Shown here piece by piece: positions 2,411-61,606 of a DNA stretch of 64,000 nt (positions within the stretch are counted from its first letter, which is position 1; the number at the start of each line of letters is the position of its first letter). The notes under the pieces were generated by a model that was not told the DNA's origin, made no database searches, and saw only the letters and a program-made list of their open reading frames with translations. The translations under genes and the position numbers were made by a program. Source of the DNA: Mycobacterium sp. BK086 (GTDB taxonomy: Bacteria; Actinomycetota; Actinomycetes; Mycobacteriales; Mycobacteriaceae); NCBI GenBank assembly GCA_004362315.1, contig SNWL01000007.1, positions 248,001-312,000 of the forward strand. Direction: 5' to 3'.

Positions 2411-5353
2411 ATGTCCGGTAGGCACACCTCGAAGGCATCGGCGAAAGCGCAACGCCGGCGACAGCCGTACCTGTGGCTCGGTGCGGGTGCGGTGACACTG
2501 GGCGTCGGCGCGGCGCTGGCCAGCGGGGCCGGGGTTGCTGCTGCCGACACCGGCGGGTCGGCAGGATCCGGATCGTCGAGCAGTCACGCCGATTCGTCGG
2601 CGGGACCGTCGAGCAAGACGGCCGGTCCCAAGCGGTCGGTGAATGCCGTCGCCAAGAGTGCCCGGGTGAACTCGCCCCGGGTGGTCCGGGCCGCTGCGGC
2701 TCCTTCGGCGGCGGCCGTCAATCCGCTCAGCGGGTGTGCGCCCAACAAGGACTGCTCGAACCTGAACCTCAGTGGGAAGAACCTCGCCGGTCTGAACCTG
2801 ACCGGATACAACTTCACCGGGGCGAACCTGTCGGGGGCGAATCTGACCAAGGCGACCCTGGCCGGAGCGACGTTGACGGGGGCGACGCTGGCGGGGTCGA
2901 ACATGACCGCTGCCAACCTGACGGGGCAGAATCTGCAGGGCTTCAACCTGGGTGGGGTGACGCTGGTCGGCGCGAACCTGACCAACGTGAACCTCACCGG
3001 ACAGAACCTTCAGAGTCGAAATCTGACCTCGGTGACGCTCGTCGGCGCGACATTGACCGGTGCCGCGCTGGCGGGGGCGAACCTCACGTCGGCGAACCTC
3101 ACGGGCCAGAACCTCCAGGGTTTCGATCTGAGCGGTGTCACGCTGGCCGGGGCGAACCTGACCAATGCGAATCTGACGGGTCAGAACCTGCAGAGCAGGA
3201 ATCTGACCCGGGCGACCTTGGTCGGCGCGACGTTGACCGGTGTGACGTTGACGGGCGCGAATCTGACGTACGCGAATCTGACCGGGCAGAACCTTCAGGG
3301 ATTTGATCTGACCGGCGTGACGCTGGCCGGAGCCGGATTGGCCAACGCCAATCTGACGGGCCAGAACCTTCAGGGTGTGAATCTGAATTCGGCGGTACTG
3401 TCCGGGGCCACGTTGTCCGGCGCGAACCTCACGGGGGCGAAGCTGACCGCGGCGTTGTTCGTCGGGACAAACCTGTCGGGCGCCAACCTCACCGGGGCGA
3501 CGATGGTCGGGGCGAATCTGTCGACCGCGACCCTGACCGGGGCGACGCTGACGCGGGCGAATCTCACGGCGGCCAATCTGACCGGGCAGAACCTTCAGGG
3601 CTTCGATCTGACCGGCGTGACGCTGGTCGGCACGATCCTGGCCAATGCCAACCTGACGGGGCAGAACCTGCAGGGCCGCAACCTGACTGGGGCGACTTTG
3701 GTTGGTGCGACGTTGACCGGGGCGACGCTGACCGGGGCCAATCTGTCGCTGACGAATCTGATCGGACAGGACCTTTCAGCGTTCGATCTGACCGGTGTGA
3801 CACTGGCCGGGGCGAATCTGACCAACGCCAATCTGAGCGGGCAGAACCTGCTGGGCAAGAACCTGGCGGGGGCGACGCTGCTGGGTGCGAATCTGACCGG
3901 CGCGACGTTGACCGGGGCGAATCTGAGCTTGGCCAATCTGATCGGCCAGAATCTGCAGGGCTATGACCTGACGGGCACTCTGCTGGTCGGGGCGAACCTC
4001 TCGGGTGCCAATCTGACCGGGCAGAATCTGCAGGGCCGCAACCTAACTGGCGCGATCCTCATCCAAGCGACGTTGACGGGAGCGAACCTCTCGGGTGCCA
4101 ATCTCACCAAGGCCAATCTGACCGGTGCCACCCTGACCGGGGCGAGCATGGCGGGAGCGAATCTGAGCCTCGCCAACCTCACGGGCCAAGATCTTCAGAG
4201 TTTTGACCTGACGGGCGTCACGCTTACCGCGGCGAATCTGACCAACGCGAACCTGACCGGACAGAACCTTCAGAATCGCAACCTCACCTCGGCGACCTTG
4301 GCCGGGGCGAACCTGTCCGGCGTGAACCTGTCGGGTGCGAATCTGACCAAGGCGAATCTGGCGGGTGCCACGCTCACCGGTGCGACGTTGACCGGAGCGA
4401 ATCTCACGAGCGCCAACCTGACCGGGCGGGACCTCCAAGGGTTGGACCTGACCGGCGTGACGCTCGTCGGGGCGAACTTGACCAACGCCAATCTGGCCGG
4501 GCAGAACCTTCAGAACCGGAACCTCACCTCGGTGACGTTGGTCGGGGCGACGCTGACCGGTGCGACGCTGTCGGGTGCGAATCTGACCGGTGCCAATCTG
4601 ACGGGGGTGAACCTGCAGGGTCTCGATCTGACGGGCGTGACGTTGGTCGGGGCCGTGTTGACCAACGCCAACTTGACCGGGCAGAACCTTCAGGGTCGAA
4701 ATCTCACTGGGACCAGATTGGGCGGCGCGGTGCTGGCGGGTGCAAATCTGGCCAACGCCAACCTCACCGGAGTCACGTTGGTCGGGGCGACGCTGACCGG
4801 TGCGACGCTGACCGGCGCCAATCTGACCAGTGCCGCTCTGACGGGGCAGAACCTCCAGGGGTTTGACCTGACCGGCGTGACGCTGGTCGGAGCGGTCCTG
4901 ACCAACGCCAATCTGAGCGGCCAGAACCTTCAAGGCCGGAATCTGACGAAGGTCACCTTGGCGGGGGCGAACCTCACCGGTGCGACGTTGACCGGGGCCA
5001 CACTGACGTCGGCCAATCTGACCAACGCGATATTGACCGGACAGAACCTTCAGGGTGTCACCCTGACCGGAGCGGTCCTGGCCGGTGCGAACCTGAGCAA
5101 CGCCACGTTGATCGGGCAGTACCTGCAAGCCGTGAACCTGGTCGGGGCCAACCTGTCCGGGGCGAATCTGACCAGCGCCAACCTCGTCAAGGCGAATCTT
5201 CAGGGTGCGAACCTGACGTCGGCCAACCTGACGTCGGCAAATCTCGGCGGGGCGAACCTGCGGGTCGCGAACCTGACCGGGGCGATCCTGACCGGTGCGA
5301 ACCTCAGCGGAGCCAATCTCACCGGGGCCAATCTGACAAATGTGGTGCGGTAG
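2411..5353 (+). CDS. Very long exported pentapeptide-repeat protein
   Basis: ATG 2411 is preferred over an in-frame GTG at 2396 because GGGGGC lies just upstream; it gives 980 residues. Residues 1-50 are a basic start followed by a hydrophobic signal (WLGAGAVTLGVGAALA) and an AAADTGG cleavage-like site. Residues ~50-108 are a Ser/Ala/Lys/Arg linker ending RVVRAAAAPS. C109 and C115 are the only cysteines and sit directly before the repeats. From ~116 to ~977 run about 172 tandem pentapeptides of the A(N/T)LxG type, which should fold as a right-handed quadrilateral beta-helix. The repeats contain almost no charged residues, unlike the acidic DNA-mimic MfpA, so a gyrase-protecting role is unlikely. 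Function unknown; a long rigid cell-envelope or secreted rod is the best inference. Confidence 0.9.
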   Translation: MSGRHTSKASAKAQRRRQPYLWLGAGAVTLGVGAALASGAGVAAADTGGSAGSGSSSSHADSSAGPSSKTAGPKRSVNAVAKSARVNSPRVVRAAAAPSAAAVNPLSGCAPNKDCSNLNLSGKNLAGLNLTGYNFTGANLSGANLTKATLAGATLTGATLAGSNMTAANLTGQNLQGFNLGGVTLVGANLTNVNLTGQNLQSRNLTSVTLVGATLTGAALAGANLTSANLTGQNLQGFDLSGVTLAGANLTNANLTGQNLQSRNLTRATLVGATLTGVTLTGANLTYANLTGQNLQGFDLTGVTLAGAGLANANLTGQNLQGVNLNSAVLSGATLSGANLTGAKLTAALFVGTNLSGANLTGATMVGANLSTATLTGATLTRANLTAANLTGQNLQGFDLTGVTLVGTILANANLTGQNLQGRNLTGATLVGATLTGATLTGANLSLTNLIGQDLSAFDLTGVTLAGANLTNANLSGQNLLGKNLAGATLLGANLTGATLTGANLSLANLIGQNLQGYDLTGTLLVGANLSGANLTGQNLQGRNLTGAILIQATLTGANLSGANLTKANLTGATLTGASMAGANLSLANLTGQDLQSFDLTGVTLTAANLTNANLTGQNLQNRNLTSATLAGANLSGVNLSGANLTKANLAGATLTGATLTGANLTSANLTGRDLQGLDLTGVTLVGANLTNANLAGQNLQNRNLTSVTLVGATLTGATLSGANLTGANLTGVNLQGLDLTGVTLVGAVLTNANLTGQNLQGRNLTGTRLGGAVLAGANLANANLTGVTLVGATLTGATLTGANLTSAALTGQNLQGFDLTGVTLVGAVLTNANLSGQNLQGRNLTKVTLAGANLTGATLTGATLTSANLTNAILTGQNLQGVTLTGAVLAGANLSNATLIGQYLQAVNLVGANLSGANLTSANLVKANLQGANLTSANLTSANLGGANLRVANLTGAILTGANLSGANLTGANLTNVVR
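2755..5343 (+). repeat. Nested pentapeptide-coding repeats (15, 60 and 180 bp periods)
   Basis: About 172 degenerate 15-bp units encode NLTGA-like pentapeptides. A larger order is visible: segments encoding TGQNLQGFDL and TGQNLQGRNL alternate, and the pair recurs about every 180 bp (12 pentapeptides) through much of the array, for example near 3001/3181/3361. Four pentapeptides make one coil in the known fold, so the super-repeat equals three coils. The regularity weakens near 3370-3550 and toward the 3' end. Confidence 0.85.

Positions 5354-61606: not shown

What the first reader, a model, noticed from the sequence alone, without database searches (positions are those of the whole stretch)
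2411..61606. One export module, four unrelated cargos
Four proteins, encoded at 2411, 20680, 33947 and 58397, open with the same WLxxGAxxxGxGAA...AxAD hydrophobic module. All then carry a basic Ser/Pro/Arg/Ala linker; in two of them it ends almost identically (RVVRAAAAPS and RVVRVAAAAPS). Behind this module are four different cargos: pentapeptide beta-helix, DUF4214 plus ParB-like fold, Ig-like plus YVTN propeller, and PGRS plus Ig-like plus papain-like. The loci are dispersed, so the module looks like a reusable export and surface-display tag. The sequence shows the module; a common exporter, processing site or anchoring role is inference.
Basis: partly seen in the sequence, partly recalled or inferred. 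Interest (0 to 1): 0.72.

Follow-up and report, generated by a model that had tools for sequence, protein, structure and literature searches.

The report
Shared export leader rivals PE domain
Dozens of unrelated proteins in some mycobacteria begin with the same short export leader, and some carry cargo that other mycobacteria send out behind PE or PPE domains, so the leader looks like a second general way of delivering proteins to the outside of the cell.

Summary
The four window proteins share a real N-terminal module. A profile built from 35 other copies in the same genome picks out these four of 568 window frames (E 6e-15 to 9e-10; next 0.67). It has a glycine-patterned hydrophobic core (first G of GxG in 39 of 39), an AxA|D signal-peptidase-I-type end, then a disordered Ser/Thr/Ala/Pro linker. 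The genome has about 50 copies (49 at E<=1e-5) on very different cargos. The profile is nearly confined to genus Mycobacterium: at E<=1e-5, 64 of 118 genomes, against 5 of 77 in other genera of the family, 1 of 170 in other families of the order, 0 of 287 in a phylum sample. Synonymous codons are randomised while the motif holds. Most striking, the cargos include PE/PPE-world domains (PE-PGRS_C protease, PE-PPE hydrolase, PGRS, even PPE), the first two of which other species carry behind PE or PPE. Leader and PE counts anti-correlate (Spearman -0.66; ancestry confounds). Exporter, cleavage and anchoring remain inference.

The parts
2411..2545 (+). leader of the pentapeptide protein, up to the predicted AxA cleavage point (45 aa)
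2546..2725 (+). Ser/Thr/Ala/Pro-rich basic linker (3' limit approximate)
2726..5350 (+). cargo: long pentapeptide-repeat region (5' limit approximate)
   Evidence: PF00805 E 7e-191
20680..20775 (+). leader of the DUF4214 protein (32 aa)
20776..20934 (+). basic linker; distant relatives align only from about residue 86
20935..22431 (+). cargo: DUF4214 (E 5e-9) and a ParB-like DGHHR region (E 0.25, under cut-off)
33947..34081 (+). leader of the propeller protein (45 aa)
34082..34363 (+). basic linker (3' limit approximate)
34364..35839 (+). cargo: weak Ig-like part and YVTN beta-propeller repeats (TIGR02276 E 2.8e-27)
58397..58531 (+). leader of the PGRS protein (45 aa from ATG 58397; an in-frame ATG at 58412 is also possible)
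58532..58744 (+). basic linker (3' limit approximate)
58745..61603 (+). cargo: Gly-rich PGRS-like region (PF21526 E 0.014, under cut-off), Big_9 Ig domain (E 6.9e-5), C39-like peptidase (E 0.08, under cut-off)

Best explanation
The module is a lineage-specific class of N-terminal export leader: a Sec-type signal peptide whose hydrophobic core keeps a glycine/alanine pattern (G-x-x-A-V-A-L-G-[VI]-G-A-A, preceded by W-L or G-R-[VI]) and ends in an AxA|D signal peptidase I site, followed by a disordered hydrophilic Ser/Thr/Ala/Pro linker. In module-rich mycobacteria it is a general leader for a large exported repertoire (hydrolases, propellers, Ig-like, pentapeptide and PGRS proteins). There it does, by another route, the job that PE or PPE domains do for overlapping cargos in PE-rich species. 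Probable steps: Sec export; cleavage before the Asp; the linker, possibly O-mannosylated as in known mycobacterial mannoproteins, spaces or holds the cargo in the envelope; the cargo acts outside the plasma membrane. Shown by sequence: module, constraint, distribution, same cargo families behind both kinds of leader. Inferred: Sec, cleavage, mannosylation, final location, functional replacement of PE.
For: Hold-out profile. 40 of 44 own-genome hits inspected are N-terminal leaders, one of them degenerate. In 39 aligned copies -1 is Ala in 39, -3 Ala in 37, +1 Asp in 30, no Cys near the site (lines printed before that script stopped); Tat motif in 0 of 39 and 0 of 70. First pattern Gly 39 of 39, second 36 of 39, while codons of identical residues agree at chance level, 0.378 against 0.403. 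Near genus restriction. 39 Pfam families among 70 proteins of 16 other genomes. Same cargo, different leader: of 30 PE-PGRS_C loci 17 have PE and 5 the module; of 30 PE-PPE-domain loci 5 have PE, 3 PPE and 9 the module. PPE behind the module in two species. PE and module counts anti-correlate. 14 of 18 relatives of the 20680 protein have the module; a planctomycete one does not.
Against: No experiment and no signal-peptide predictor. The module-bearing PE-PGRS_C and PE-PPE proteins look like one orthologous group each, so independent swaps may be few, and direction is unknown. Five of 30 PE-PGRS_C and several PE-PPE loci have plain leaders, so replacing PE does not require the module. The 30 + 30 loci are best-scoring samples. 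Linker charge flips between species.
Confidence: 0.7

Rival explanations
1. The glycine-patterned core is an address for a dedicated receptor or route (a SecA2-like choice, or a partner that packs against the small-residue face), so it marks a separate export class rather than ordinary Sec.
For: Invariant core glycines that generic signal peptides do not need; weak likeness of 6 of 39 copies to KxYKxGKxW signal peptides, best E 0.0021; in GspB, core glycines route to the accessory Sec (PMC5578698, passages).
Against: No partner gene found; window neighbours tested are not export genes. A paper title in a reference list says mycobacterial SecA2 export is determined by the mature domain (seen in PMC6333443).
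Confidence: 0.3
2. Ordinary Sec signal peptides of high-GC mycobacteria that look alike by composition and convergence.
For: Ends and n-region are standard Sec/SPase I; codon randomisation would also fit convergence; at E<=0.01 the profile rings once or twice in 49 of 170 genomes of other families.
Against: At E<=1e-5: 64 of 118 in the genus, 1 of 170 in other families of the order, 0 of 287 in the phylum sample; plain leaders of the same genus score 0.45 or worse.
Confidence: 0.12
3. The core is an uncleaved signal anchor that tethers the cargo to the plasma membrane.
For: Long conserved hydrophobic stretch and hydrophilic spacer.
Against: Ala at -3 in 37 of 39 and at -1 in 39 of 39, with Asp after it in 30 of 39, is better explained by cleavage.
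Confidence: 0.1
4. Recent copying of one 5' gene segment (gene conversion) with no constraint on the module.
For: Some copies reach 77% identity in the module.
Against: Synonymous codons agree no more than chance, 0.378 against 0.403 over 10,465 comparisons; the 77% pair is at 0.52 over 29 codons.
Confidence: 0.03

Closest known systems
PE / PPE N-terminal domains (type VII / ESX substrates)
   Same: Clade-specific N-terminal targeting unit reused on many cargos, shared cargo families (PE-PGRS_C, PE-PPE domain, PGRS), disordered linker, probable envelope destination
   Different: No PE or PPE fold in the leader; Sec/SPase I-like features; about 45 aa rather than about 100-180
KxYKxGKxW and YSIRK signal peptides of Firmicutes
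   Same: Extended conserved signal-peptide class on large surface proteins; Trp and glycines in the core; Ser-rich stretch after cleavage
   Different: No KxYKxGKxW or YSIRK motif; only 6 of 39 copies weakly hit PF19258; no sorting signal was looked for
Glycine-containing GspB signal peptide of the accessory Sec system
   Same: Conserved core glycines before a Ser-rich region
   Different: No long n-region; no SecY2 link tested; route unknown
Mycobacterial O-mannosylated Sec proteins (Apa type)
   Same: Ser/Thr/Ala/Pro-rich region after a signal peptide
   Different: Modification here is inference only; no shared leader motif known to me

Membership tests
Sec / signal peptidase I signal peptide | basic n-region, hydrophobic core, small residues at -3 and -1 | tested here: met
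   median 3 Lys/Arg in the 15 residues before the core; -3 Ala 37 of 39, -1 Ala 39 of 39
Sec / signal peptidase I signal peptide | cleavage and SecYEG dependence | not testable with these tools
   needs proteomics or genetics
Generic Sec signal peptide (no special class) | profile should ring at similar strength across bacteria | tested here: not met
   E<=1e-5 in 64 of 118 genus genomes, 1 of 170 in other families of the order, 0 of 287 in the phylum sample
Tat signal peptide | S/T-R-R-x-hydrophobic pair | tested here: not met
   0 of 39, 0 of 70
Lipoprotein signal peptide | Cys at +1 | tested here: not met
   0 of 39, 0 of 70
PE / PPE type VII leader | PE or PPE domain at the N-terminus | tested here: not met
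   no PE in the four or among families matched by A4; the one PPE lies behind the module
KxYKxGKxW signal peptide (PF19258) | score over the curated cut-off of 23.6 bits | tested here: not met
   11.3 bits on the 20680 protein; 6 of 39 copies at E<=0.1, best 0.0021 (cut-off not shown there)
Accessory Sec / SecA2 substrate | export lost without SecA2 | not testable with these tools
   needs a secA2 mutant
Mycobacterial mannoprotein | hexoses on linker Ser/Thr | not testable with these tools
   composition fits; no mass spectra

The most novel reading that the evidence does not exclude
Some mycobacteria run a second, non-type-VII delivery class addressed by a glycine-coded leader. It forms a modular surface repertoire parallel to the PE/PPE repertoire and has exchanged cargos with it, up to placing a PPE domain behind the leader. 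The two repertoires replace each other across the genus.
Probability: 0.35. Interest if true: 0.82.

Novelty: new variant of a known kind. Interest (0 to 1): 0.62.

Why it matters
A 2025 review states that the N-termini of M. smegmatis PGRS genes are questionable and that a PE domain there needs confirmation (PMC11939664, section 7). In this genome PGRS proteins carry this leader or plain leaders where the N-terminus could be read. If general, it would explain how species with few PE proteins export PGRS, PecA-type protease and PE-PPE hydrolase cargos. It would also give a named, searchable class of some 50 exported proteins in one genome, and a testable question: whether the core glycines choose the route.

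Tried and rejected
Tat, lipoprotein, recent copying and generic-Sec readings were tested and set aside (37, 40, 41). The RVVR-AAAPS string as a processing motif: not rejected outright, weak and not found in 70 other copies. A dedicated exporter beside the genes: ten window neighbours scanned, none an export gene (eight had Pfam matches at E<=0.001, two none). No structure was predicted. No metagenome or viral scan was made. Linker windows of two of 39 copies (L047, L068) were misplaced; one search repeats the work with them mended and replaces those numbers. By-eye and pattern labels of PE missed several; the counts used are the Pfam ones. One search also read some loci in a wrong frame; one search replaces it.

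Full report
OBSERVATION. The four ORFs exist as described. Their first about 45 residues align with 11 invariant columns of 44. A profile built from the other 35 aligned copies in the genome finds these four among 568 stop-to-stop window frames at E 5.7e-15 to 9e-10; the next is 0.67.

COPY NUMBER. A profile from the four alone gave 55 hits at E<=10 in the 6.93 Mb genome. I read 44 of these 55: 40 are N-terminal leaders of long ORFs (L066 degenerate, without AxA) and 4 are chance or internal matches. The 39-row profile A4 gives 49 hits at E<=1e-5 (my count) and 54 at E<=0.01; 39 of the copies built it. A4 columns: first pattern Gly 39 of 39, second Gly 36 of 39, an earlier Gly 33 of 39; -1 Ala 39 of 39, -3 Ala 37 of 39, +1 Asp 30 of 39 (printed before that script stopped).

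DISTRIBUTION. At E<=0.01: 92 of 118 genus genomes (0 to 56 copies), 25 of 77 genomes of other genera of the family, 49 of 170 of other families of the order, 1 or 2 each, 16 of 287 outside the family in the phylum sample. That loose level is mostly background. At E<=1e-5: 64 of 118, 5 of 77 (best 4e-9), 1 of 170 (4e-7), 0 of 287. These splits are my counts from the tables; candidates scored per genome were capped (64, 93, 37, 25). So the class is nearly genus-restricted, with a few likely relatives in sister genera, and unevenly expanded.

CONSTRAINT. Over 741 pairs and 10,465 positions with the same residue, codons agree in 0.378, against 0.403 expected from codon usage. The copies are old or independently arisen; the motif is kept at protein level.

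LINKER. Corrected figures are: Ser/Thr/Pro/Ala/Gly median 0.64 (39 own) and 0.62 (70 from 16 other genomes), aromatics 0.7% and 0.3%. Net charge is positive in 37 of 39 own, but 35 positive, 33 negative, 2 neutral elsewhere. AGP is recurrent (15 of 39 against 3.8; 17 of 70 against 4.7), though orthologues inflate that. AAAxP is modestly enriched; the RVVR-like string is in 3 of 39 and 0 of 70.

CARGOS. Own genome, Pfam: pentapeptide, DUF4214, propellers, Ig-like, GH5, GH16, GH64, CBM2, CBM60, Calx-beta, phosphorylase, phosphoesterase, alpha/beta hydrolase, DUF4185, PGRS, PE-PGRS_C, PPE; some have no match. In 70 proteins of 16 other genomes 39 Pfam families occur at E<=1e-5 (25 shown).

OVERLAP WITH THE PE/PPE WORLD. 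PE-PGRS_C (the PecA-type aspartyl peptidase) is in 44 of 118 genomes. Of 30 loci fetched (best first), 17 have PE, 5 the module, 5 a plain leader by eye (L118, L125, L126, L127, L129), 3 are unresolved (L106, L112, L120). PE-PPE domain, 15 genomes I chose (11 module-rich, 4 PE-rich), 30 loci fetched: 5 PE and 3 PPE, all from the PE-rich four; 9 module, one each from nine module-rich genomes; 13 other or unresolved. A PPE domain (PF00823 E 9e-50) follows the module in one own-genome ORF, and in a second species at 55% identity over residues 6-268; an internal GTG could also start the PPE part, so use of the fusion is not proven. Own-genome PGRS: 12 matches, 7 over cut-off; leaders by eye: module in five, degenerate in one, plain in three, unresolved in three; no PE seen. 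PE counts (capped at 39) and module counts over 118 genomes: Spearman -0.66; none has at least 10 modules and at least 9 PE; 15 are low in both. The exception-like case is G043 (8 PE, 56 modules).

RELATIVES OF THE 20680 PROTEIN. 18 loci: 14 have the module at E<1e-3, with linkers of very different length before a 42-82% identical cargo. One from the planctomycete Paludisphaera soli has a short METRRLLSAA start instead, which recalls a planctomycete surface-protein motif (recalled, not tested). Three others have none.

MECHANISM. Shown: a constrained leader class reused on many cargos, some shared with PE/PPE leaders. Inferred: Sec export, cleavage, envelope location, O-mannosylation. Mannosylated peptides of M. 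tuberculosis lie in such Ser/Thr/Pro/Ala stretches and glycosylation is thought to accompany Sec export (PMC7287972, passages). Core glycines route GspB to the accessory Sec (PMC5578698, passages). Against a SecA2 signal: a title in PMC6333443's reference list.

LITERATURE. PMC11939664: passages and section 7. PMC6819658, PMC4733049, PMC3037379, PMC7287972, PMC5578698, PMC6333443: passages only. PMC3037379 already reports PE-PPE domains without PE, one with a predicted signal peptide. I found no description of the module in searches (five module strings, 0 papers), 77, 79 and 80, which cover openly licensed PMC papers only. No NCBIfam or Pfam model matched more than 6 of 39 copies. Rv0888, a published M. 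tuberculosis exported enzyme, is recalled to start similarly; untested.

Noticed in passing
L148 (G000:C1:1815825-1816655) and L149 (G004:C1:1528333-1529109): PPE domain behind the Sec-like leader in two species; in the own copy the Trp expected in the WxG turn appears to be replaced, by eye.
   Followed up: partly
window 56773-57957: GT87 glycosyltransferase gene (E 4.6e-55) next to the PGRS module protein.
   Followed up: no
L145 (Paludisphaera soli): Relative of the 20680 cargo in a planctomycete with a different short leader.
   Followed up: no
L118, L125, L126, L127, L129: PE-PGRS_C protease behind plain signal-peptide-like leaders in further species: a third leader type for the same cargo.
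   Followed up: partly
window 976-2199, 9108-10472, 62016-63227: EAL+DICT protein and two cytochrome P450 genes near the module genes; no sign of export function.
   Followed up: no
G193, G190, G160, G161 (other genera of the family): One strong module-like match each (E 4e-9 to 7e-9) on very long frames, 1271-2308 aa; possible origin of the class outside the genus.
   Followed up: no
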